Shown here: positions 51,570-64,000 of the stretch, in pieces | Layout of the letters: every line of letters starts with the position of its first letter | Position numbering within the stretch: the stretch's first letter is position 1 | Assembly (NCBI RefSeq): GCF_001553785.1 | Contig: NZ_LOJP01000001.1 | Span: 303,935 to 367,934 of the forward strand | Direction of reading: 5' to 3' | Origin: Actinoplanes sp. TFC3 | GTDB taxonomy: Bacteria; Actinomycetota; Actinomycetes; Mycobacteriales; Micromonosporaceae | Length of the DNA: 64,000 bases | Position numbers and translations under genes: made by a program | Notes under the pieces: model-generated | The model's database searches: none | Told to the model about the DNA's origin: nothing | Seen by the model: only the letters and a program-made list of their open reading frames with translations

Positions 51570-53432
51570 TCAGCCGCGTACCGGGGTGCCGATCAACTGG
51601 GCTTCTATGGAGGTCTGGGAGAGGACTGCCCAGCGGACGGCGCGGCGGTTGATGACGGCGAGCATGTCGGCTCGGATCCGGGTCAGCCAGTCTGCTGTTT
51701 CGCCTAGGCCCAGGGCTGCGCCTACTAGTTGGGCTTCTTCGGGGCGTAGGGGTTGGACCAGGAGGAGGTCGGCGCGGGAGGCTACGTCGGCGTCGGCGGG
51801 GGTGAAGTCGTCGCGGACGACCATGGTGGCTTGCCAGCCTGCGCCGGGGCGGTTGTCGGCTCCTACCGGGCCGATGTCGACGATGACGAGCAGGGGGTGC
51901 AGGGCTGAGCCGGGCGGGATTTCGACCGCGCGGCCCGGGGGGATCACCGCGATGGATTCGCCGGGGACTGCGGCGCCGCGGACGAAGGGTTCCCAGGCTT
52001 GAGGCCGAGCCGTTTGTACGACCACGCGCGCACCCAAGGCCATGGCGCGCAGGGCCAGTAGTTGGGCGCAGCGAACTCCGCCGACCAGCAGGGCCCGGGT
52101 CTGCTCGGGACGGAACAGGCGGGCGATCACCGGTTCCTTGTGCCTGTTCTGGCCAACCATGAGGCCGGCATTGCCGATCGGGAGGTACAGATCGTTCAGG
52201 TCGCTCTCGTGGACCCCTGTCTCGCCGGCGCGGCCCGGGATGGCTGCGGTTGCCGGGATGCCGAGCGGCAGCGTTGCGGTCAGGCCCTCCAGGTGCTCGC
52301 CGTCGAGGCGGCGGGCGGTGGCTCGTTCGTTGGCGAGCAGTTTGCGGAGGGCCTGCGTGGCTGTGGACAGGGTGGTGGCGTCGGGGGCGGCTAGCCGGAC
52401 GGTCAGGTCGACTGCTGTGGACGTACCGGAGGAGGCTCGTGGTCCTGCTCCGAGCGCAACCGTTGTCGCTGCCGCGGGCAGTCCCAGCATGCGGGCGATC
52501 AGCCTGCGGGAGGTCTCGATGCGCAGGTCGGGCCAGCGGTTGAGGCGGAACGTGGCCTGCGTCATGCCGCCCACCTGCAGGCCCGGCCAGCTTTCTTGCG
52601 CGGCGCCGACGCCGTCGTCATGGGCGAGTTCGGCGATGACCCGCAGTGCTGCCGTCTCGCCGAGGGGGCGCGCGGGGGTGGGGGTGAGGCGGCGGAGCAG
52701 CTTGCGGACCAGGCCGGACAGGGCGCGGCGCAGGTCGTCCTCGGACCAGCCTTCGCCGCGCAGCACGCGGACAGCGAGGAAGGCGCGGCTGTAGCCGAGC
52801 AGGCGGCCCTCGGAAAGCTGACGATAGGAGTTGGCGGGCGTGCCACCACCAGCACGTAATGATGGGGCCGGAGCGCCGGTCAGCAGGATCTGGATGCGGC
52901 ACGGCGGGTGCTCGGTGGCGGTCGGCGGGAGCAGGCTCGCGGGGGAGGGGATGGTGGTGATGTCCTCGGCGAGCAGACCGGTCGGGTCGCCCAGCTCAAG
53001 AACCGCTGTGTAGCCCTGGCCGTCCACGATGATCGCGGCAGGATCGCCGGCCAGCTCGGTCTGCTCGACGCGGGAGCCGGGCGCGACGAATCCCAGCAGC
53101 GCGGTGGGAGCGCTGTCCACCGAGACGAGGTGATTGCGCCGGGAGTAACGCAGGGCCGTGCCGAACCACTCGAACGCCCAGCGGCCGCGCAGGTGTAGCC
53201 AGGTGACGACGAGGATGATGAGCGCGACGAACGCGCCTGCTCCGAGCGCGATGGGTCCGTTGATGGCACCGATGAGCGCGACGGCCAGGGCGATTTGGGT
53301 GCTGACGAGCTGTCCGGTGCGAATGCCGAAAACTCGTCCATGTCGGACACGCTGGCGCGGGAGTTTGGGCAGTTGCTGGCCGGCACCGCTCAGCTCCGGG
53401 AAGCTGCGTCCGGTTGCCACCTGTGCCGTCAC
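51570..53432 (-). CDS. eccE: type VII secretion protein EccE
   Basis: 620 residues from a GTG. Two membrane helices near residues 42-80 (LVSTQIALAVALIGAINGPI; LGAGAFVALIILVVTWLHL) are followed by GRWAFEWFGTALRYSRRNH and a long cytoplasmic domain, the EccE layout. EccE sits at the rim of the ESX membrane complex. The protein is longer than mycobacterial EccE (about 400-460). It diverges from the two WXG100 genes across a 310-base gap. eccB, eccC, eccD and mycP are not in the window. The gap 53433-53742 has no gene; it holds a GGTTAACC palindrome and a direct repeat ATACGTC twice, near 53660-53675. Confidence 0.82.
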   Translation of the reverse strand: MTAQVATGRSFPELSGAGQQLPKLPRQRVRHGRVFGIRTGQLVSTQIALAVALIGAINGPIALGAGAFVALIILVVTWLHLRGRWAFEWFGTALRYSRRNHLVSVDSAPTALLGFVAPGSRVEQTELAGDPAAIIVDGQGYTAVLELGDPTGLLAEDITTIPSPASLLPPTATEHPPCRIQILLTGAPAPSLRAGGGTPANSYRQLSEGRLLGYSRAFLAVRVLRGEGWSEDDLRRALSGLVRKLLRRLTPTPARPLGETAALRVIAELAHDDGVGAAQESWPGLQVGGMTQATFRLNRWPDLRIETSRRLIARMLGLPAAATTVALGAGPRASSGTSTAVDLTVRLAAPDATTLSTATQALRKLLANERATARRLDGEHLEGLTATLPLGIPATAAIPGRAGETGVHESDLNDLYLPIGNAGLMVGQNRHKEPVIARLFRPEQTRALLVGGVRCAQLLALRAMALGARVVVQTARPQAWEPFVRGAAVPGESIAVIPPGRAVEIPPGSALHPLLVIVDIGPVGADNRPGAGWQATMVVRDDFTPADADVASRADLLLVQPLRPEEAQLVGAALGLGETADWLTRIRADMLAVINRRAVRWAVLSQTSIEAQLIGTPVRG

Positions 53433-53742
53433 CGCGCGCCGTCCTTCGTTTGGGGGCTTTCCTGCCGGCTCATCGTATGAGGTGGGCGACGTCGGCGGGG
53501 GGCGGCCTGTGGATGGCAGGCTTGCCAGGCATCGATATCCACAGCTTGACCGGCGACGTTACCGTTAGCGCGTCTGGACAACTACGGTCAGCCATGAACG
53601 GGGACTTAGTCCAGGTCAGGAGTGCCCCCCATCGTGTGCGGGGAAGGGTTAACCTGATGCATACGTCAATACGTCGATGGTCGGAAAGCTCAGTACGACC
53701 AAGTCCATTCCGGACACGGCGCGGGACGACAAGGGAAGCGGG

Positions 53743-54087
53743 GTGACGTCCGGGATGTCCGGAACCGAAGCTCAATCTCCGGTGATGGCTCAGGCCGCCG
53801 GAAAGTTCGAGCAGGTCAACCAGGACCTGACGACCATGCTGAGCCAGCTCATGACGCGGCTCTCCGTGCTTCAGACGGCCTGGGCCGGGCGGGGTGCGAA
53901 GGCGTTCGAGACCGTCCGGGCGCAGTACGAGGCGGATCTGACCAAGATCAACCAGGCGCTGGCGGAGACGGCTGAGGCGATCAAGACCTCGGGTGTCAGC
54001 TACCAGAACACCGACGAGTCGGCCGCGAGTTCGTTGACCAACGCCGGTGGTGGCGGTGGCGGCGGCTACCTGCCGCTCGAGAACTGA
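53743..54087 (+). CDS. WXG100 family type VII secretion substrate
   Basis: 114 residues from the GTG at 53743, with AAGGGA 8 bases upstream; an in-frame ATG at 53677 would add 22 residues. Two helices are broken by the WxG turn in LQTAWAGRGAKAFETVRAQY. The C-terminus is a flexible glycine run (GGGGGGGYLPLEN). WXG100 proteins form helical dimers secreted by the ESX system. The neighbour at 54105 is the likely partner, 17 bases downstream. Confidence 0.88.
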   Translation: MTSGMSGTEAQSPVMAQAAGKFEQVNQDLTTMLSQLMTRLSVLQTAWAGRGAKAFETVRAQYEADLTKINQALAETAEAIKTSGVSYQNTDESAASSLTNAGGGGGGGYLPLEN

Positions 54088-54104
54088 AGGCAGGGGAGCG
54101 CGCG

Positions 54105-54398
54105 ATGACCGATGGACTGCTCAAAGTCAACTTCGGCACGCTGGCGACAGCCGGCGCCGATATCCAGCGGGCCGTTAGTGAGATGGAGCAGAAGCTCGCC
54201 GATCTCGACAGCTTCGCGAAGCCGCTGGTCGACACGTGGTCGGGTGACGCGCAGAGCGCTTACGCGGCCCGTCAGCTGAAGTGGACCACCGCTTCCACCG
54301 ACCTGAAGAACATTCTTCACAACATCAAGGTTGCGGTCGACCAGGCGGCGCAGGACTACGCGACGACCGAGGCGAACGCGGCGAAGCGCTTCTCCTGA
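54105..54398 (+). CDS. WXG100 family type VII secretion substrate, partner
   Basis: 97 residues, ATG with GGGGAG 7 bases upstream. Classic size and fold: helix, WxG turn as VDTWSGDAQSAYAARQLKW, helix. The C-terminus is AVDQAAQDYATTEANAAKRFS, containing YATTE, the YxxxD/E-like export signal of ESX substrates. It forms a probable heterodimer with the product of the gene before it. A terminator-like hairpin follows at 54444. Confidence 0.9.
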   Translation: MTDGLLKVNFGTLATAGADIQRAVSEMEQKLADLDSFAKPLVDTWSGDAQSAYAARQLKWTTASTDLKNILHNIKVAVDQAAQDYATTEANAAKRFS

Positions 54399-54443
54399 TC
54401 TTGCGAACGGTCCGGCACCAGGGCCAGCAGAGATCTGACGGAC

Positions 54444-54477
54444 GCGGCCGGGACATCCTTCGGGGTGACCCGGCCGC
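54444..54477 (+). terminator. hairpin after the WXG100 pair
   Basis: GCGGCCGGG (54444-54452) pairs perfectly with CCCGGCCGC (54469-54477), loop 16 bases, no T-tract. The remainder of the 336-base gap up to 54735 holds no supported gene; it contains the likely promoter of the SseB gene (TAGGTT near 54688). Confidence 0.5.
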
Positions 54478-54734
54478 AGTCGGGTGCGCTGGGTGTTGTC
54501 CGGCCCTTTGGGTGCAGGTAGCCGTTGTGGGATGCTGATGCCGATCGTCGATTCTGACGCGATCCCTCCGGAAATGCGGCTACACAAAGTCATCAAACGG
54601 TATCGCTGCGCCACGAATGAGCAAGATCCGGGTTCGGTTTGGTGTACGCGTCCAGCCGCCCATTGTGATCGGGCTCTGACCTTGTAGGTTGTACGCGTTG
54701 AGGAGGCCCGTTCGCCGCGAAGGGAGAGGTGGAC

Positions 54735-57614
54735 GTGACCGAGTGGGAACCGGCTACGGACGCCGAAGTCGCCATGCGCAATGCTCTGCGCGCGGACGAT
54801 CAGGAGTCCTATTTCCGCATTCTCGCCGGCGTCGACCTGCTGTTACCCGTTACCGCGGATGCCCTGGCCGGCCTTGAGCCGCTGGGCTGGGGAACGTGGA
54901 GCACCGGCGGGCGAACGCACGTGCTTGCCTTTACCTCACCTGCCGCGCTGCAGGGTTGCCTGGCCGACTACACCGGCTCGGCCCGCCGCGTCGCATACCA
55001 GGAACTCGCCGAAACCTGGCCCAACCTCGAGTGGTGGCTAGCCGTCAACCCCGGCCTGCCCATCGAGGGCTACCTGCCGGCCTGGTTCGTCGCCCAGCTC
55101 AGCCGAGGTGACCTGCGCCTGCCAACCCGAGGCCCAGGCCGCGACGCCACCGACAGCCGCATCCCGGACCTGCAGGCCGCAGCCATGGCGGCCAGCGCGG
55201 CGGCGGCTCAGGATTATGCGAACCCGGGCTCCGGGGGACCGGTCCAGGTGGCGGCGCCTGCGGTAGCAGCGCCTTCCGCCGCCGGATTCGCGGCGAACGG
55301 ACCTTCCCCAGCGGAGTCCTCAGCGGCCGGTATCGCCGCAGCGGGAACTCCAGCGGGTGGGCCTCCGGGAGCTGGGCACCCAGAGACGAGGCCTTCGGGG
55401 GCTGGGCTTTCGGCGGCCGAAACGGCGCCGCGGTTGGAAGCCGTAGGGGCGCAGGCTGGCAGCGGTGCCGGCGCACCTGGGCAGACCAGTGGTGGCGCTG
55501 ACGCACACGGGCAGGCCGGCGGGATTGCGGATCGTGGGTTCGGCGCCGGTGGGGCCGAGGATCGTGGGTTCGGCGCCGGTGGGGCGCGGGGCTACCGGCA
55601 GGACAACTACGCGCAAGGCCAAGGCGGTGAGACGCAAGCTCCGGTGGGACCTGGCGGCCTTCCCTTGCGTACGCCCGGAGCGGTCCTGCCCAGCGGGCTT
55701 CCCTCGCGCGTGCCCTCCACTCCGCCGGGGATGGGCGGCAGCGGACCGACCACCTCCTTCAGCGGGTTCACGCCGACCGGTTCGCGGCCCAGCGACGGCG
55801 GGCCGAGCGCGGAGCCGGGCCGAGGCACCGACCGGCAGGATGAGACGCGGCGCCCGGACGAGCGTGACGACAGTGGCAGCGATGATCTCGGCCAGCCGGC
55901 CTGGGACAGCCGCCAGACGCAGAACCGGCAGCAAACCCAGAACTGGGAGCAGGGCCAAGGCGACCAGCAACCCCAGACCGGACAGCGGGCTCAGCGAGAG
56001 CAGCAGCCGGCCGCAGCCCCGCAGAACAGCCAGGACGATCAGCCGCGGGTAACGCCACTAGCAGCCCAAGCTCCAGCCACCCGCGCCGGAGCAGGCAGCT
56101 TCAGCAGCTCGATCGCCAGCGGCAGCGCGCTCGATGCCCTCGCCAGCCGCTCCGGCACCACCGCACCCGCGTCCGGCCCGAGCGCTCTCGATGCTCTCGG
56201 CAGCCGTAGCGCGCCCCGCCCCGCCGAACCGCTGCCGCCGTTGCAGCCGTTGGACGGGCCGCTGCCTACGCGTACCCCGATGGCTCAGACTCCTCCGGTA
56301 CCGAGCCACATCCCGACGCCCGACCCAGCCAGCGACACCGGCCCGACCAGCTCCGAGACCAGCAGCGGCCTGCCCCGGCGCCAGGTCACCCCGCCGTCCG
56401 AGCGGCCCTCTTCGATGGCCGCTGCGGCTCAGGCTCTTGCGGCTAAGGGGGAGGCTGGGGCCTCGCCGGAGGTGCCGCCGACCGCTGCTGATCCGGCCGT
56501 CACCTCTCGGCTGACGTTGCCGGGGCCGGCGACCGTGCAAACGCCGGCGCCTCGGCCTGCTCAGCCGGCACCCGGTCCGGCCGTCGTACCGCCAGTCATT
56601 CCGGGCACGGCCGGCGCGAATCCGGCGGCGCAGACGGGCCCGAATCCGGCGCCGCAGGCGGCCGAGTTCTTGCCGGCTAACGACGTTGAGCGGGATCTGT
56701 ACCACGCCTCGCTGGAGCACAGCACCGACACCTACCTGTCCACGTTGCTGTTGGCCAACGTTCTCGTGCCGGTGGCTGACCAGTCGCGGCCGGGCAGCTC
56801 GCCCGGCGAACCCGGTTTTGCTTTCCGCACCGAGGAGATCGGCGGGGAGCGGTTCCTGGTGGTGTTCACCAGCCGGGAGCGGTTGGGGGATCACTTTGAT
56901 GAGCCGGTACGCACAGTCAGCGCGCGGTTCGTTGAGCTGATCCGGAACTGGCCCGACCCGGCTTGGGCGTTCGCCGTGAACCCCGGGTCTGTGGTGGGGG
57001 CCAAGTATCCCGGGCAGCAGGTTGTGGCGCTGGCCAGCTGGGCGGTTGAGGCCGGGCTGGGCGGCGACGGCGATGAGCTGCCCCTCGACGACGTGGCGCC
57101 GGAGATCGACGGCGAGCTTGACGCGTTGCCGACGATGATGCAGAAGACCGTGCCGCCGCATCAGGTCGACTTCTATCTTGACCGGGGGTACGACCGGGTG
57201 GCCGGGTTCGTGCACCGGTGCGCCGAGGTTGAGCATCTGCGTACACCGGGTGAGCTTTTTGCCGCGTTGGGGCTGGTCCACGACGGGTCTCCGTACCAGG
57301 AGGACGCCAAGGAAGCCTTCCTGCTGCGGTGGTCGGCCTTCCGCCCCAGCCTGTACCGCATCCCGTACGGCGGGCAGAGCGAGCAGGCGTTGCGAGCCAT
57401 GGACGGCTGGGTCATCGAGCGGCCGCCGTTCCGGGGCAACGGGTTCGCGCCGGGTGAAGGGCGTGACGTGATCGCCGAGTTCAAGGTGGACAGCGTGCGG
57501 CTGCCAAGCGGGGCTCAGTTGTGGCGCATCGACGCCGACGGGGACGAGCGAATCGTGGCTTTGTTCGACAGCGATGCCCCGGCGTGGCGGAGGGTGGGTG
57601 AGCAGAATGCGTGA
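54735..57614 (+). CDS. large protein with two SseB-like domains and a long disordered linker
   Basis: 959 residues from the GTG at 54735 (GGGAGAGG 5 bases upstream). Domain 1 (about 5-135): AMRNALRADDQESYFRILAG, LLLPVTADAL, THVLAFTSPAALQ, WWLAVNPGLPIEGYLPAWFV. Domain 2 (about 645-800) repeats it: DLYHASLEHSTDTYLSTLLLA, NVLVPVADQ, RFLVVFTSRERL, WAFAVNPGSVVGAKYPGQQV. Both match the SseB N-terminal fold. Between them lie ~500 residues of Ala/Gly/Pro/Gln/Ser. The last ~130 residues form a separate domain, including FLLRWSAFRPSLYRIPYGG. Position next to eccE and WXG100 genes suggests a type VII accessory or substrate-handling role. It overlaps the next gene by 8 bases. Confidence 0.8.
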   Translation: MTEWEPATDAEVAMRNALRADDQESYFRILAGVDLLLPVTADALAGLEPLGWGTWSTGGRTHVLAFTSPAALQGCLADYTGSARRVAYQELAETWPNLEWWLAVNPGLPIEGYLPAWFVAQLSRGDLRLPTRGPGRDATDSRIPDLQAAAMAASAAAAQDYANPGSGGPVQVAAPAVAAPSAAGFAANGPSPAESSAAGIAAAGTPAGGPPGAGHPETRPSGAGLSAAETAPRLEAVGAQAGSGAGAPGQTSGGADAHGQAGGIADRGFGAGGAEDRGFGAGGARGYRQDNYAQGQGGETQAPVGPGGLPLRTPGAVLPSGLPSRVPSTPPGMGGSGPTTSFSGFTPTGSRPSDGGPSAEPGRGTDRQDETRRPDERDDSGSDDLGQPAWDSRQTQNRQQTQNWEQGQGDQQPQTGQRAQREQQPAAAPQNSQDDQPRVTPLAAQAPATRAGAGSFSSSIASGSALDALASRSGTTAPASGPSALDALGSRSAPRPAEPLPPLQPLDGPLPTRTPMAQTPPVPSHIPTPDPASDTGPTSSETSSGLPRRQVTPPSERPSSMAAAAQALAAKGEAGASPEVPPTAADPAVTSRLTLPGPATVQTPAPRPAQPAPGPAVVPPVIPGTAGANPAAQTGPNPAPQAAEFLPANDVERDLYHASLEHSTDTYLSTLLLANVLVPVADQSRPGSSPGEPGFAFRTEEIGGERFLVVFTSRERLGDHFDEPVRTVSARFVELIRNWPDPAWAFAVNPGSVVGAKYPGQQVVALASWAVEAGLGGDGDELPLDDVAPEIDGELDALPTMMQKTVPPHQVDFYLDRGYDRVAGFVHRCAEVEHLRTPGELFAALGLVHDGSPYQEDAKEAFLLRWSAFRPSLYRIPYGGQSEQALRAMDGWVIERPPFRGNGFAPGEGRDVIAEFKVDSVRLPSGAQLWRIDADGDERIVALFDSDAPAWRRVGEQNA
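55531..55584 (+). repeat. direct repeat in the disordered linker
   Basis: A 24-base identical string (beginning ATCGTGGGTTCGGCGCCGGT) occurs at 55531 and 55561, encoding DRGFGAGGA twice with a 30-base period. It indicates recent slippage in the linker. Confidence 0.85.
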
Positions 57615-57969
57615 CGGGTACGTCGTTACCTGGCGCGGGCGTGAATACGACGCCTCGCCCGACGGGGAGAACGTGCGCATCTACGCGCCGGAGGCCGGGG
57701 ACGGCTTCGAGCAGGTGCGACCCGGCCGCTACGTCAAAGTGCTGGGCCCCGACGAATTCAGCGACCTGACGTACGTGCGCACCACCTGCACCTGGCGTGG
57801 TCAGCCGTTCGTCGTGCTGGCCGAGGCCGACGCCTGGCTGCGGGTCGAGTACACCGGCGGCCGCGCTCCCGTTGCCGAAGCGCTCGGGCTCGAAGAGTTC
57901 GACTTCGGGGTGTACCAGGGCTGGGCGCCCGCGAACGAGGTCACCGAGCTCTACGAACACCGGGTTTAG
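57607..57969 (+). CDS. small protein translationally coupled to the SseB-domain gene, unknown
   Basis: 120 residues from the ATG at 57607, which lies inside the last codons of the previous gene; a GTG at 57598 is an alternative. Soluble, no signal. It looks internally duplicated: residues 6-50 (VTWRGREYDASPDGENVRIY) and 68-110 (CTWRGQPFVVLAEADAWLRV) share WRG and a beta-strand pattern. The second part continues EYTGGRAPVAEALGLEEFDFGVYQGW. I do not know the family. Its tight coupling to the double-SseB gene suggests a partner or chaperone. Confidence 0.72.
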   Translation: MRDGYVVTWRGREYDASPDGENVRIYAPEAGDGFEQVRPGRYVKVLGPDEFSDLTYVRTTCTWRGQPFVVLAEADAWLRVEYTGGRAPVAEALGLEEFDFGVYQGWAPANEVTELYEHRV

Positions 57970-58010
57970 GGCCGCCGCAGCCCGGCCATCCCCTGCGGAA
58001 CAGACCCTGG

Positions 58011-58931
58011 CTAGCTCTTCAGCCAGCGCAGGATCTCCCCGGTCACCACGTCGGTGGCCTCCTGGTGCAGGAAATGGCCCGCGTTGTCGATCAGCCGCCA
58101 CTCGTAGGGGGCGATGACGTAGCGGCCCGACCCCTGCGCCGTGCGCGGCAGCGTTGCGGTGTCCAGAGCGCCGTGCATCTGCAGCGTCGGGGTGATCAAC
58201 GGCTTCTGCATCAGCTTCACAAAGCGATAACCCTGCAGGCGAAGGGCCGAGCGGAAGACCCAGCGGTACGCCTCCAGCGCGCAAAACGCCGCCTGGGGAA
58301 TCTGCATCGCCTCTCGGCACCGGGCCACATAGTCGGCGTGCTCGGCGGTCTGGGCCCACTCGGGGCTGCTCCACCGGGTTATGAGCTCGCCGATCATCGC
58401 GGCGTCGTCCTTGGTGAGCACGTGTTCGTACCGGGGGACCTGGAATTTGAGGATTGAGGCGCTGGCCGAGAGTTGGCCGCGGGGGTCGGCGAACAACGCC
58501 GTGCGCAGCCGCAACGGGTGGGCGGCGCCGAGCACGACCAGGCGGCTGACCATCTTGGGGTGGAATGCCGCGGCGGCCCAGCCGATCATGCCGCCCGCGC
58601 CGGCGCCCACGATCATGGCCGAGCGTTCGCCCAGCGCCCGGATCAGGCCGGTGACGTCGGCGGCCATGGTGTAACCGTCGTAGCCGCGCGGTGGCTTGTC
58701 GCTCGCGCCGTAGCCGCGCAGGTCCATCGCCACCGCTCGGAAGCCTGCGTCGGCCAGCCGGGGCAGCATGTCGTGCCAGGCCCACCAGAACTCGGGGAAG
58801 CCGTGCAGCAGGAGCACCAGTGGACCGGTGCCGGCTTCGACGACGTGGAACCGGCTGCCGTTGGCGCCGACGAAACGGTGGGTCCAGGGGCCCTCCGTCA
58901 GCACGGCTGACTCGTCCACCTGCGAACTCAT
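58011..58931 (-). CDS. alpha/beta-hydrolase fold protein lacking an obvious nucleophile
   Basis: 306 residues from the ATG at 58931; the longer frame to 59123 is rejected. It has the epoxide-hydrolase-like start: GSRFHVVEAGTGPLVLLLHGFPEFWWAWHDMLPRL, then GFRAVAMDLRGYGASDKPP. The acid (HGALD) and the histidine (DNAGHFLHQE) of the triad are in place. The nucleophile elbow, normally GHDxGG or GxSxG, reads VGAGAGGMIGW, with glycine at the Asp/Ser position. It may be non-catalytic or use another residue. A cap domain lies between. Confidence 0.85.
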   Translation of the reverse strand: MSSQVDESAVLTEGPWTHRFVGANGSRFHVVEAGTGPLVLLLHGFPEFWWAWHDMLPRLADAGFRAVAMDLRGYGASDKPPRGYDGYTMAADVTGLIRALGERSAMIVGAGAGGMIGWAAAAFHPKMVSRLVVLGAAHPLRLRTALFADPRGQLSASASILKFQVPRYEHVLTKDDAAMIGELITRWSSPEWAQTAEHADYVARCREAMQIPQAAFCALEAYRWVFRSALRLQGYRFVKLMQKPLITPTLQMHGALDTATLPRTAQGSGRYVIAPYEWRLIDNAGHFLHQEATDVVTGEILRWLKS

Positions 58932-59539: not shown

Positions 59540-61921
59540 TCAGGAAATCTTGATCTTCATCGAGGTGCCGTCCTGGTCGGCAACCTTGATCTTGACGCCG
59601 ACGGCCGGGAGCTTGACGCCCGCCCACGGAACCTCTTCGTAGAAGTACTTGTCGGTGTCGTCGAACGTCTTGTTGCCGGCCTGGCCGCGGATGTAGCTGG
59701 CCTTGCCGTTGATGTGCAGCGTGAACGAGTCAGCCTTCTCGCGGCTGAACGGCGCGTCGTACATCTGGATGCGGTTGCGCCACGGCAGGCCCTCGAGGTT
59801 GTACATCGGCTCGGGGTGCGAGTCGATGATCAGGTTGAGGCCCTGACCCGGGTGCTGGTTGATGTTGTTGTTGGCCTGGGAGGTGTCCCAGTAGGAGATC
59901 AACAGACCCTGCTGGTACGAGAAGTGCTCGGCCCAGTCCGGCTTGGCCGGGAAACCGAAGTTGTACGGGCCGGTCTTCAGGTACTTGTCATACGACACGT
60001 AGCTGCGGTTGCCGGCGATGTAGAAGTTGTCGTAGTCCTGCGTGACCGAGGAGCCCACGATGCTGAAGCCCTTGGCGGTCCACGTCGGGGTGCCCTCGGC
60101 GCCATCCACCGGACCGGCAACGCCGTTCGTGGTGATGGTGAGGTTGTCGCCGAAGAAGCCACCCGCGGACAGGCCACCGTCGGTCAGGTAGTGCAGGCGG
60201 ACCTGCACGTTCTTGCCGGCGTACTGGTCCAGCGGGATGTGGATGTCCTGCCAGGCACCGTTGCTCGAACCGCCGAGCGCCGGGCGTCCCGGGTTGCCAC
60301 CGTCGGTGCCGAGCGGCGCGCCGTTGACCGTGCCGTTGAGCGGGGTCCACGTGGTGCCGTTGTCAGCCGAGCCCTCGAAGTAGAGGTAGTCGTAACCCTC
60401 TTCGATGTTGTAGCGGCCCTTGAGGTCGAGCGCCGCCGAGGTCTTACCGGTCAGGTCGACCGACTTGGTCAGCGTGGTGTTCAGGTTGTCGTCGTTGCCG
60501 GAGAACCACTGCTTCGTACCGGCGAACGGCGCCCCGAGGTCACTGGTGACCTCCTTGTCGGGCAGCACGACAACCGCACCCTGCGCCTTGGCGGTGTTGT
60601 ACTCCTGCGGGCCAAGCTCAAGGGTCTTCTTCTGACCCGCGACCACGGTCTCGTAGTCGAGCCAGCCGAGCTGCAGCTTCTGCCACGCACCGAGGTCGCC
60701 TGGGCGCGTGCCGAGGGCCTCACCGGCACCCGAGAGGCGGCTCTGCGCCATCAGGGTCCAGTACTCGGGGTTGGCGTTGGTGCCGCCGCTGGTGTCGTAG
60801 TCATCCGGCAGGCCGAGGTCGTGGCCGTACTCGTGAGCGAAGACGCTCAGGCCACCGTTCTCGGGCTGGATGGTGTAGTCGGAGATCCAGACGCCGGTGT
60901 TGCCGATCTGCTGGCCGCCGTACTGGTTGTAGGCCGGGCCGGTGACGCCGACGTCGGTCAGGTACGCGTTCCAGCGGTGCGCCCAGATGGCGTCCTCACC
61001 CTGCTGCGGGTCACCGTCGGACTGGTCGCCGCCGGCGTGGACGATCTGGAAGTGGTCGATGTAGCCGTCCGGCTCGTTGAAGTTGCCGTCGCCGTCGTAG
61101 TCGTTGCGGTCCCACTGGTCGTACTGCTTGACCTCTTCGGCGATCTGCGCGTCGGTGCGGCCGGCCGCCTTGCGCTCGGCCACCCACTTGTTCACCGCGT
61201 CGGTGATCAGCGCCCAGGTGTTCTGGTCGGTGCAGACGCCGTGGATGTCGCAGTCCCGGCCGTAACGAGCCTCGTTGTACGGCACCTTGACCCAGTCCGA
61301 GACCTCACCCTCGACGCTGTAGCGCCCGGACGACTGGGTCTCGTAGTAGGTCTTGAGCGACTCGGCACCGTCGCCCTTGCCGAAGTACAGCTGCTCGAAG
61401 TGTGCCTTGTTGTAGTCCGCCTGCCAGACCGTGGTGTTGTCCTTGCTGCGGTCAGGCTGGGGGATGTTGTTGTGCAGCGGACCCTCGAACGTGGTCGGAC
61501 CGGGCGTGGCCGGGTCGCTGTCGACGTCCGGGTAGTCCGGGTGCCGCTCGTTGCCGAACTCCGCCAGGATCACGAAGATCTTGTCGGTGCGCTCGTTGTC
61601 GAGCTCGACGTACTGGTCCTGCCCGGCCGCCTTCACCGTGCGGGCCGCGAAGCCGCCGCCCTTGGTGTTGCCGACCTTCGCAACGGTGCTGCCGTTCCGC
61701 TGCTGCGTCTTGAACTTGCCCTTCAGGACACCCTGAACGGCTTCCTGGCGCAGCTCGCGGCGCTTGTCTTCAAGGGGGTTGGGTAGGTCGTCCTTCTTCG
61801 GCGCCTTGCTGGCGACCGGAGCCGGCTCCACCGGAGGCGCCGCCTGGGCCACGGTCGGGAGCGAGATCCCGACTGCGCTGACCATGGCGGCGCTGAGTAG
61901 TCCCACGACTACTTTGCGCAC
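59540..61921 (-). CDS. secreted M6 (immune inhibitor A type) zinc metalloprotease
   Basis: 793 residues from the GTG at 61921, with GGAGG 6 bases upstream; the frame opens to 61972. Signal peptide MRKVVVGLLSAAMVSAVGIS to about VAQA. A propeptide-like region (about 30-95) leads to the M6 domain. The zinc site is HEYGHDLGLPDDYD (HExxHxxGxxD), with many Asp-rich loops that likely bind calcium (DRNDYDGDGNFNEPDGYIDHF). C-terminal beta domains follow, including a MAM/jelly-roll-like segment with SVDLTGKTSAALDLKGRY. It digests extracellular proteins. It is a tandem paralogue of the gene at 62119. Confidence 0.92.
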   Translation of the reverse strand: MRKVVVGLLSAAMVSAVGISLPTVAQAAPPVEPAPVASKAPKKDDLPNPLEDKRRELRQEAVQGVLKGKFKTQQRNGSTVAKVGNTKGGGFAARTVKAAGQDQYVELDNERTDKIFVILAEFGNERHPDYPDVDSDPATPGPTTFEGPLHNNIPQPDRSKDNTTVWQADYNKAHFEQLYFGKGDGAESLKTYYETQSSGRYSVEGEVSDWVKVPYNEARYGRDCDIHGVCTDQNTWALITDAVNKWVAERKAAGRTDAQIAEEVKQYDQWDRNDYDGDGNFNEPDGYIDHFQIVHAGGDQSDGDPQQGEDAIWAHRWNAYLTDVGVTGPAYNQYGGQQIGNTGVWISDYTIQPENGGLSVFAHEYGHDLGLPDDYDTSGGTNANPEYWTLMAQSRLSGAGEALGTRPGDLGAWQKLQLGWLDYETVVAGQKKTLELGPQEYNTAKAQGAVVVLPDKEVTSDLGAPFAGTKQWFSGNDDNLNTTLTKSVDLTGKTSAALDLKGRYNIEEGYDYLYFEGSADNGTTWTPLNGTVNGAPLGTDGGNPGRPALGGSSNGAWQDIHIPLDQYAGKNVQVRLHYLTDGGLSAGGFFGDNLTITTNGVAGPVDGAEGTPTWTAKGFSIVGSSVTQDYDNFYIAGNRSYVSYDKYLKTGPYNFGFPAKPDWAEHFSYQQGLLISYWDTSQANNNINQHPGQGLNLIIDSHPEPMYNLEGLPWRNRIQMYDAPFSREKADSFTLHINGKASYIRGQAGNKTFDDTDKYFYEEVPWAGVKLPAVGVKIKVADQDGTSMKIKIS

Positions 61922-62067
61922 TACGTACCTCCGTCGACGTGCCCGAAGCGCTGGGGTACAGCGGTTCGGCATGCAGAGTCCCGTGTTCGGAACCTAGGTG
62001 AACGTATGTAAAAGAAACGATGCTTGGGAAGTAGTGCAGGCAAATTAACCAAGATCTTTACCCTTGT

Positions 62068-62118: not shown

Positions 62119-64000
62119 TCAGTTGAGCGCGATCTTGGCAGAAGTCCCGGTCTGCTCCAGCACCTTGATCTTGACGCCGACGGCCGGCAGCTTCACGCCG
62201 GCACTGGGCAGCTCGTCATAGAAGTACTTCTGGGTGTCGTCGAACAGCGGCTGCGCGGCCTGGCCCCGGACGTAGCTGGCCTTGCCGTTGATGTGCAGGG
62301 TGAACGAGTCGGCCTTCTTCAGCCCGAACGGTGCGTCGTAGATCTGCACCCGGGGACGCCACGGCAGACCCTCCACGTTGTAGAACGGCTCGGGGTGCGC
62401 GTCGATGTAGAGGTTGCGGCCCGTGCCGGGGTGCGTGCTGACGTTGTTGTCCGGCACCGAGGTGTCCCAGTACGAGATCAGCACGCCGGTCTGGTACGGG
62501 AAGTGATCCACAAAGTCCGGCTTGGCCGGGTAGCCGAAGAAGTACGGGCCGGTCTTGAGGTACTGGTCGTACCAGGTGTAGTTGCGGGCGCCGACGATGT
62601 AGAAGTTGTCATACGCCGCGGTCACCGACGAGCCCACGATCGAGAAGCCGTCGAGCGTCCACGTGCTGGCCGCCTCGGCGCCGTCGGTCGACAGAGCCGC
62701 GCCGTCAGCGGTGATGGTGATGTCGTCGCCGAAGAAGCCGCCCTCGGAGACGCCGCCGTCGGTGCGGTAGTGCAGGCGGAAGGAGATCTTCTTACCGGCG
62801 TACGCGTTCAGCGGCACGGCGATGTCCGTCCAGGCACCGTTGCTGCTGCCGGTCAGGGCCGGGGTGCCGCTGCCGTCGGTCGGGAAGGGGGCACCGTTCA
62901 CCGTGCCGTTGAGCCGGGTCCAGGTCGTGCCACCGTCCTGCGACGCCTCGAAGTAGAGGTAGTCGTAGTCCTGCTCGATCGCGTAGCGGCCCTTGAGGGT
63001 GACTGCGGCGCTGGTCTTGCCGGTGAGGTCGATCGTCTTGGTCATCGACGTGTCGAGGTCATCGGCGTTGCCCGAGAAGAACTGCTTCGAGCCGGCGAAC
63101 GGCGCTCCGAGCTGCGTGGTCACCTGCTTGTCGGGCAGCACGACAACCGCGGCCTGCGCCTTCGCCGAGTTGTACTCCTCCGGGCCCAGATCGAGCGTCT
63201 TCTTCTGCCTCGCGACCAGGGTCTCGTAGTCCAGCCAGCCGAGCTGCAGCTTGTTCCAGGCGCCCATGTCGCCCGGGTGGGTGCCGATGCCCTGGTCACC
63301 GGCCGCGCTGAGCCGGTTCTGGGCCATCAGCGTCCAGTACTCGTTCGGGTTGTCGCCGCGCCCGGTGGTGTCGTAGTCGTCGGGCAGCGTCAGGTCGTGG
63401 GTGTACTCGTGCGCGAAGACGCTGAGGCCACCGTTCTCCGGCTGCATCGTGTAGTCACCGATCCACAGGCCGGTGTCGCCGATCTGGGTGCCGCCGTACT
63501 GGTTGTAGGCCGGGCCGGTGTGGCCGATGTCGCCCTGGCTCACGTACGAGCGGTGGCTCCAGATCGCGTCCTCGCCCTGCTGCGGATCGCCGTCGGCCTG
63601 GTCGCCGCCGGCGTGCACGATCTGGAAGTGGTCGAGGTAGCCGTCGGGCTCGTTGAAGTCGCCGTCGTGGTCGTAGTCGTACCGGTCGTGCTGGTCGAAC
63701 GACTTGAGGTCGGCGACGATCTCGGCCTCGGTGCGCCCGGCCGCGCGCTGGTCGGCGACCCACTTGTTGGCGGCGTCGCGCACGAGCTGCTGCACGTTGC
63801 TGCAGACGTTGCTGCCGCACAGGTCACGGCCGTAGCGGGCCTCGTTGTACTGGACCTTGACCCAGTCGGTGACCTCGCCGTCGACGCTGTAACGCCCGGA
63901 GGACTGCGCCTGCATGTACGTCTTGAGCGACTCGACGCCCGGAGCCTCACCGAAGTACAGGTTCCGGTAGTAGTCGGAGCTGTAGTCCGAGCGCCAGATG
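62119..64000 (-). CDS. second M6 (immune inhibitor A type) metalloprotease, 5' end beyond right edge
   Basis: The frame is open from the stop at 62119 to base 64000; at least 627 codons, N-terminus missing. It aligns along its length with the first M6 gene, e.g. ISDYTIQPENGGLSVFAHEY against IGDYTMQPENGGLSVFAHEY, and KADSFTLHINGKASY in both. The zinc motif differs: HEYTHDLTLPDDYD, so the glycine of HExxHxxG is threonine. The calcium-type loops and C-terminal beta domains are kept. This is a tandem duplication whose second member may have altered activity. Confidence 0.9.
   Translation of the reverse strand, partial: IWRSDYSSDYYRNLYFGEAPGVESLKTYMQAQSSGRYSVDGEVTDWVKVQYNEARYGRDLCGSNVCSNVQQLVRDAANKWVADQRAAGRTEAEIVADLKSFDQHDRYDYDHDGDFNEPDGYLDHFQIVHAGGDQADGDPQQGEDAIWSHRSYVSQGDIGHTGPAYNQYGGTQIGDTGLWIGDYTMQPENGGLSVFAHEYTHDLTLPDDYDTTGRGDNPNEYWTLMAQNRLSAAGDQGIGTHPGDMGAWNKLQLGWLDYETLVARQKKTLDLGPEEYNSAKAQAAVVVLPDKQVTTQLGAPFAGSKQFFSGNADDLDTSMTKTIDLTGKTSAAVTLKGRYAIEQDYDYLYFEASQDGGTTWTRLNGTVNGAPFPTDGSGTPALTGSSNGAWTDIAVPLNAYAGKKISFRLHYRTDGGVSEGGFFGDDITITADGAALSTDGAEAASTWTLDGFSIVGSSVTAAYDNFYIVGARNYTWYDQYLKTGPYFFGYPAKPDFVDHFPYQTGVLISYWDTSVPDNNVSTHPGTGRNLYIDAHPEPFYNVEGLPWRPRVQIYDAPFGLKKADSFTLHINGKASYVRGQAAQPLFDDTQKYFYDELPSAGVKLPAVGVKIKVLEQTGTSAKIALN

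What the first reader, a model, noticed from the sequence alone, without database searches (positions are those of the whole stretch)
51570..57969. Unusual type VII module: eccE, WXG100 pair, double-SseB protein and coupled small protein
eccE diverges from two WXG100 genes and, without eccB/C/D in view, is followed by a 959-residue protein with two SseB-like domains joined by ~500 disordered residues. A 120-residue protein overlaps it by 8 bases. SseB domains are chaperone-like in other secretion systems. The set could be a chaperone or tether module of actinomycete type VII secretion that has not been characterised, as far as I know.
Basis: inference. Interest (0 to 1): 0.6.

Follow-up and report, generated by a model that had tools for sequence, protein, structure and literature searches.

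The report
Conserved type VII accessory protein pair

Summary
In detail: eccE, two WXG100 genes, a 961-aa double-SseB protein and a 120-aa protein overlapping it by 8 bases. The small partner is modelled as all-beta with an SH3-like second half. CTD is in 200 of 200 sampled genomes of the family (195 at E<=4e-40) and is better conserved than EccE or the WXG proteins. In 150 genomes of the order, 28 of 31 SseB-CTD genes lie within 20 kb of eccE, and all 34 CTD genomes have EccE. In 9 of 15 loci from other families a single-SseB version sits between an EccA-type ATPase and eccE. This constancy argues against a polymorphic toxin-immunity pair, although homologous pairs occur in giant toxin-like frames. 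Best reading: a cytosolic type VII accessory (SseB adaptor plus ART-like head and partner), possibly working with EccA. Function is inferred.

The parts
51570..53432 (-). eccE, type VII secretion membrane component
   Evidence: TIGR03923 107.1 bits, cut-off 108; 109.4 bits in the genome search
53677..54087 (+). WXG100 protein a (136 aa)
   Evidence: PF06013 54.6 bits
54105..54398 (+). WXG100 protein b (97 aa)
   Evidence: PF06013 60.9 bits
54729..57614 (+). SseB-linker-SseB-CTD protein (961 aa)
54729..55163 (+). SseB domain 1 (approx. aa 1-145)
   Evidence: PF07179 22.5 bits, cut-off 21; mean pairwise identity 80% in 66 loci
56649..57137 (+). SseB domain 2 (approx. aa 641-803)
   Evidence: PF07179 41.3 bits; model resembles TTHA0547, Foldseek E 1.5e-3, and weakly Tic22
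57138..57611 (+). CTD: C-terminal domain (aa 804-961), weakly ART-like model; E917 invariant in 37 of 37 aligned copies
57607..57969 (+). small partner (120 aa), modelled all-beta with SH3/KOW-like second half; start overlaps the upstream stop by 8 bases

Best explanation
The last two genes encode a conserved cytosolic accessory of an actinomycete type VII secretion system. Shown: a constant protein made of one or two SseB domains plus CTD, followed by a translationally overlapping partner, is kept near EccE, with WXG100 genes in this family and, in other families, an EccA-type ATPase and sometimes EccB/C/D. Suggested by models: SseB is TTHA0547/Tic22-like, CTD is weakly ART-like, the partner is partly SH3-like. 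Inferred: the SseB domains bind type VII substrates or a machine subunit, the tether lets two SseB domains reach separate clients, and the CTD-partner complex is a docking or regulatory head, possibly handing clients to the EccA-type ATPase. That would make it an analogue (not a homologue) of mycobacterial EspG-EccA. Whether CTD still binds or cleaves NAD is unknown.
For: Universality: CTD in 200 of 200 genomes of the family, 195 at E<=4e-40; EccE in 199 of 200. Linkage: 28 of 31 SseB-CTD genes within 20 kb of EccE in 150 genomes of the order, in four families; all 34 CTD genomes have EccE, 82 of 150 do overall. Context: of 15 fetched SseB-CTD loci of other families, 9 have a relative of this genome's beta-helix EccA-type ATPase on one side and EccE on the other (L059, L063, L064, L066, L068, L072, L073, L075, L084), a tenth (L060) has it beside SseB; 4 also show EccC, EccD and/or EccB in the stretch held (Pfam check of L059 and L064). 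Double-SseB matches without CTD also sit in clusters with EccB/C/D/E and the ATPase (L178, L179). Constraint: mean pairwise identity in 66 loci is SseB1 80%, CTD 79%, partner 73%, SseB2 67%, WXG 57-63%, EccE 55%. Coupling: partner start between 2 bases after and 8 bases before the end of the CTD stop in 72 of 80 loci.
Against: No functional data. Homologous CTD-partner pairs occur in giant toxin-like frames beside type VII cores, and a partner-like domain heads TNT-domain proteins, which suits a toxin context. In one genus of the family (g4) 3 of 3 SseB-CTD genes were not found near EccE: one 110 kb away, two on other contigs. Of the 15 other-family loci only L060 showed a WXG match with the queries used. 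29 of all 60 CTD places in the order lie more than 15 kb from a listed EccE or on another contig, mostly fused paralogues and giant frames. The conservation figures come from loci chosen by CTD similarity. The ART resemblance is weak (Z<=5) and part of the CTD model is unreliable.
Confidence: 0.5

Rival explanations
1. Toxin-immunity pair: CTD is an ART/NADase-type toxin carried by an SseB protein and exported by the type VII system; the overlapping small protein is its immunity protein.
For: CTD resembles the ART-fold toxins Tne2, TreX and TreTu a little better than other rows; homologous pairs lie in giant frames beside type VII cores, one with a papain-fold toxin domain; overlapping genes.
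Against: Constant in 200 of 200 genomes of the family and among the best-conserved parts of the locus, unlike polymorphic toxins; CTD and partner lie in one open frame in L070, L075, L076-L079 and L082, which a plain immunity role does not predict; no WXG/LXG/PPE match in the SseB-CTD protein.
Confidence: 0.22
2. Intracellular ART-type modifier: SseB recruits a type VII subunit or client and CTD ADP-ribosylates it, with the partner as regulatory subunit.
For: Weak ART-like fold; E917 invariant in 37 of 37 and R867 in 34 of 37 CTD sequences; SseB domains occur in ADP-ribose-processing systems (PMC9503650, passages).
Against: No invariant Arg or His on the first strand (K806 in 26 of 35 with a residue there); STS and ExE motifs were not identified; whether E917 sits at the catalytic place was not checked with coordinates.
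Confidence: 0.15
3. The neighbourhood is incidental: SseB-CTD-partner has a general cellular role and merely lies near eccE.
For: A fused CTD-partner paralogue lies in what looks like a housekeeping neighbourhood (metG-, ksgA-, ispE-like genes; names recalled from the sequence starts); 41 of 46 SseB loci without CTD are not near EccE.
Against: Linkage to EccE is kept in four families with different gene orders.
Confidence: 0.13

Closest known systems
Mycobacterial ESX (T7SSa) with EccA and EspG
   Same: EccE, EccB/C/D and a cytosolic EccA-type AAA ATPase; EccA-like proteins act on type VII substrates (PMC10659427, passages); a dedicated accessory beside them (EspG recalled)
   Different: No EspG match, and PPE only below cut-off, in the window proteins scanned; here the accessory is SseB-CTD plus partner, and the ATPase carries a beta-helix, a form PMC10659427 mentions for EccA
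SseB family PF07179 (E. coli K-12 SseB)
   Same: SseB N-terminal domain, twice
   Different: E. coli SseB carries SseB_C (PF14581) behind it; here a linker, a second SseB and CTD follow
ART-fold toxins Tne2, TreX, TreTu
   Same: Similar predicted core (Z 3.5-5.0, 85-103 residues aligned) and an adjacent partner gene
   Different: Constant rather than variable, no invariant first-strand Arg/His, single-frame CTD-partner forms
T7SS variants T7SSc-T7SSj (PMC11217815)
   Same: Type VII clusters with extra accessories
   Different: Seven of its eight new types are in Bacillota (abstract); SseB has 0 occurrences in its main text

Membership tests
T7SSa component EccE | Match to TIGR03923 at its cut-off | tested here: met
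   109.4 bits, over the cut-off, in six-frame search; the protein alone scores 107.1 against 108
WXG100 | PF06013 above cut-off | tested here: met
   54.6 and 60.9 bits, cut-off 27.3
SseB (PF07179) | SseB N-terminal domain above cut-off | tested here: met
   22.5 and 41.3 bits, cut-off 21
E. coli-type SseB | SseB_C domain PF14581 behind SseB | tested here: not met
   Present in K-12 SseB, not listed for the window protein at E<=0.1
Polymorphic toxin with immunity gene | Variable C-terminal domain behind a constant N-terminus | tested here: not met
   CTD in 200 of 200 genomes of the family
Polymorphic toxin with immunity gene | Small gene immediately downstream | tested here: met
   Tight overlap or abutment in 72 of 80 loci
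Polymorphic toxin with immunity gene | WXG/LXG/PPE-type export domain in the toxin protein | tested here: not met
   Only SseB listed for the protein at E<=0.1 in Pfam
Polymorphic toxin with immunity gene | Toxicity neutralised by the partner | not testable with these tools
   Needs expression experiments
ART superfamily | ART fold | tested here: inconclusive
   Z 3.5-5.0 to Tne2, TreX, TreTu and pertussis S1, next unrelated row 3.2; Z under 8 may be only a common arrangement; no Foldseek match at E<=0.001
ART superfamily | Invariant first-strand Arg/His and catalytic Glu | tested here: inconclusive
   E917 in 37 of 37, but K806 in 26 of 35 and no invariant Arg/His there; placement on the fold not checked
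TNT (PF14021) | Sequence match of CTD to TNT | tested here: not met
   hhalign probability 0.3 of 100 against three TNT sequences; no Pfam hit for the window CTD at E<=10
EspG-like type VII substrate chaperone | Binding of type VII substrates | not testable with these tools
   Needs pull-down

The most novel reading that the evidence does not exclude
An actinomycete branch of type VII secretion has a built-in ART-derived subunit: an NAD-binding or ADP-ribosylating domain fused to Tic22-like SseB chaperone domains and held by a partner protein, coupling client handling (with a beta-helix EccA ATPase) to NAD. It could be a toxin-immunity pair domesticated into machine components.
Probability: 0.25. 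Interest if true: 0.8.

Novelty: new variant of a known kind. Interest (0 to 1): 0.58.

Why it matters
Outside mycobacteria it is poorly known how actinomycete type VII systems choose and prepare substrates. A protein pair present throughout the sampled family, tied to EccE and in other families to an EccA-type ATPase, is a concrete candidate for that role. It makes the question testable by single gene deletions in harmless laboratory strains. If CTD proves to be a non-toxic ART relative, it would be a case of a toxin-immunity pair recruited into a secretion machine.

Tried and rejected
Sequence searches: no Pfam match for the window CTD or partner at E<=10. Scans of family members gave only weak single-member hits (CTD in Pfam; partner in NCBIfam; partner in Pfam, among them KorB_C 0.047 and SH3_3 0.073). 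CTD was scanned against NCBIfam only as part of the whole protein; PHROGs and PADLOC were not used. PDB sequence searches gave nothing convincing (SseB1). Foldseek: no match at E<=0.001 for either model in PDB nor for SseB2-CTD in BFVD. VIA-align for the partner: best Z 5.7, KorB C-terminal domain, on its second half; the first half was barely tested. Promoter and terminator scan of 53300-58200: 0 and 1 found, 0.3 and 1.9 expected.

First idea, dropped: a plain type VII polymorphic toxin with immunity gene. I began with it (labels TOX and IMM remain in the outputs) and dropped it after the single-frame CTD-partner forms, the family-wide constancy and the conservation figures.

Second idea, dropped: that 3000-4600 aa open frames are single proteins holding both domains. 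The partner gene is in another frame there; in such G+C-rich DNA a frame that starts at codon position 3 of a gene is open almost by default (reasoning). Why the CTD frame has no stop of its own in 5 of 5 such loci stays unexplained.

Rows dropped before counts; 8 of 80 partner starts fell outside the range and were not re-examined; only the 66 loci with all seven parts; in 11 loci cut close upstream the 'SSEB1' hit is the second SseB again, so a separate first SseB is seen in 69 of 80; the CTD list was typed without the fused, giant-frame and weak second copies; the G077:C21 gene (partial CTD hit) and the G084:C16 fragment (CTD on contig C31) count as 'without CTD'; six weak or partial EccE rows were left out, none on the contig of a counted gene within 20 kb by their positions; one search's table was itself cut. 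One search used all 60 listed CTD places: 31 within 15 kb of EccE in 29 genomes, 6 giant-frame places at 18-21 kb. One search kept the best 80 of 233.

Outside the order: a CTD profile match in 5 of 296 genomes of the phylum, two of them this genome and a family member; only 13 candidates per genome were scored, so absence is weakly tested.

Literature: 'SseB' with 'type VII secretion' and 'WXG100': none; 'SseB' with 'EccE': 3, unrelated by title and abstract; 'SseB family protein' with 'secretion': none. 'Undescribed' rests on these searches of open-licence papers. Seen as passages: PMC9503650, PMC10659427, PMC4182475, PMC3482391; PMC11217815 as abstract, outline and passages. PMC4182475 lists Micromonospora lupini eccE in one cluster with eccB/C/D and other esx genes in a second cluster; I did not reconcile this with locus L146 of that strain, where EccE lies near SseB-CTD.

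Full report
What is there. The window (G000:C1:303935-367934) carries, after respiratory complex I genes and several unrelated ones, a type VII group: eccE on the minus strand, two WXG100 genes and a 961-residue protein on the plus strand, and a 120-residue protein whose start overlaps the preceding stop by 8 bases. The closest named relatives of its C-terminal domain are in Couchioplanes, Actinoplanes and kin (84-85% identity); Couchioplanes and Plantactinospora, both among the named loci, belong to the Micromonosporaceae. That the unnamed family f1 is this family is inferred from this. EccCb, EccD, EccB, an EccA-type ATPase and more WXG100 genes lie about 209-228 kb away on the same contig; a second EccB is on another contig; the only EccE match is the one in the window.

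The overlooked domain. Behind the second SseB domain are 158 residues (window 57138-57611, 'CTD') without Pfam match. They recur behind SseB in other families, in one frame with the partner, and in giant frames. Over 37 aligned copies E917, G826, G905, P926 and W953 never change and R867 is kept in 34. The AlphaFold model of SseB2 plus CTD has mean pLDDT 79; model residues 147-165 and 244-278 are below 50. For the CTD part the best structural matches are ART-fold toxins (Tne2 Z 5.0, TreX 4.8, TreTu 4.5 and 3.5, pertussis S1 3.7-4.0), the next unrelated row being 3.2. The tool warns that Z under 8 may be only a common arrangement, and Foldseek gave no match at E<=0.001. I call this a weak ART resemblance. 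SseB2 matches TTHA0547 (Foldseek E 1.5e-3, probability 1.00; Z 7.0) and Tic22 weakly (Z 4.1 and 3.3).

The partner. The 120-residue protein is modelled at mean pLDDT 93, nearly all beta; its second half resembles SH3/KOW-like barrels, best Z 5.7. A related domain is the N-terminus of TNT-domain proteins of another family (hhalign probability 98.7%).

Linkage to type VII secretion. In 150 genomes of the order CTD is found in 34 and EccE in 82; all 34 have EccE. Of 31 SseB genes with CTD, 28 are within 20 kb of EccE; of 46 SseB loci without CTD, 5 are. The three exceptions belong to one genus. In 80 named loci chosen by CTD, the partner and the adjoining SseB are in 80, a separate first SseB in 69, the WXG pair in 68 and EccE in 66; 12 of the 14 without EccE end less than 2.6 kb upstream of CTD, L142 ends at 4.3 kb, and L139 has 10 kb without an EccE match. 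Of 15 fetched SseB-CTD loci of other families (L058-L064, L066, L068, L071-L073, L075, L083, L084), 9 have the order EccA-type ATPase, SseB-CTD, (partner) EccE, and 4 also show EccC, EccD and/or EccB. Two further clusters hold EccB/C/D/E, the ATPase and a double-SseB match without CTD.

Constancy. CTD is in 200 of 200 genomes of the family, 195 at E<=4e-40; G445, G473, G570, G580 and G590 have only weaker matches, 2e-11 to 2e-8. EccE is in 199 of the 200. Mean pairwise identity in 66 loci: SseB1 80, CTD 79, partner 73, SseB2 67, WXGb 63, WXGa 57, EccE 55%. These loci were chosen by CTD similarity, which favours CTD; in four genomes of the order-wide sample (L051-L054) identity to the window is CTD 68-69%, partner 70-73%, SseB1 63-71%, EccE 48-60%, WXG 43-53%.

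Interpretation. A toxin in a polymorphic system varies between strains; this one does not. A plain immunity protein is not fused to its toxin; here CTD and partner share one frame in L070, L075, L076-L079 and L082. The SseB-CTD protein and its partner stay near EccE, and often near the EccA-type ATPase, through rearranged gene orders. I therefore favour a type VII accessory, with SseB as the client- or subunit-binding part. That EccA-like ATPases act on type VII substrates and may carry a beta-helix is stated in PMC10659427 (passages); that SseB is related to Tic22 chaperones is stated in PMC9503650 (passages). The analogy with EspG is recalled. The steps from context to function are inferences.

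Known or new. EccE, WXG100 and SseB are known families. The SseB-CTD-partner set turned up in none of my paper searches, and a 2024 survey of T7SS variants has no occurrence of SseB in its main text. I rate it a new variant of a known kind.

Noticed in passing
L060:16847-17804, L065:12691-13525, L067:13433-14363, L069:4186-5038, L080:4160-5132: Near type VII cores of one genus, giant open frames hold a CTD-like domain followed by a partner gene in the +1 frame behind a purine-rich, ribosome-binding-site-like stretch, while the CTD frame has no stop (5 of 5); in L065 it runs on into a papain-fold toxin domain, PF15644. Nested gene or frameshift; unexplained.
   Followed up: partly
L174:3910-5964, L176:2679-4643, L177:3811-5811: A partner-like domain is the N-terminus of about 650-aa frames ending in a TNT (PF14021) domain in another family.
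   Followed up: partly
L070 (G000:C12:564831), L076-L079, L082; L085: CTD and partner in one frame, without SseB match, apparently one per genome; L085 showed only the partner half by tblastn, its CTD being seen. L075 has SseB, CTD and partner in one frame.
   Followed up: partly
L178, L179: Second type VII clusters with EccB/C/D/E, a beta-helix EccA-type ATPase and two SseB matches without CTD.
   Followed up: partly
window 59540-61972 and 62119-63915 (-): Two neighbouring immune-inhibitor-A type M6 metallopeptidase genes.
   Followed up: no
L018:3891-7136: A 1081-aa open frame between EccB and the EccA-type ATPase in this genome's type VII core has no Pfam match at E<=0.001 and no NCBIfam match at E<=1e-5.
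   Followed up: no
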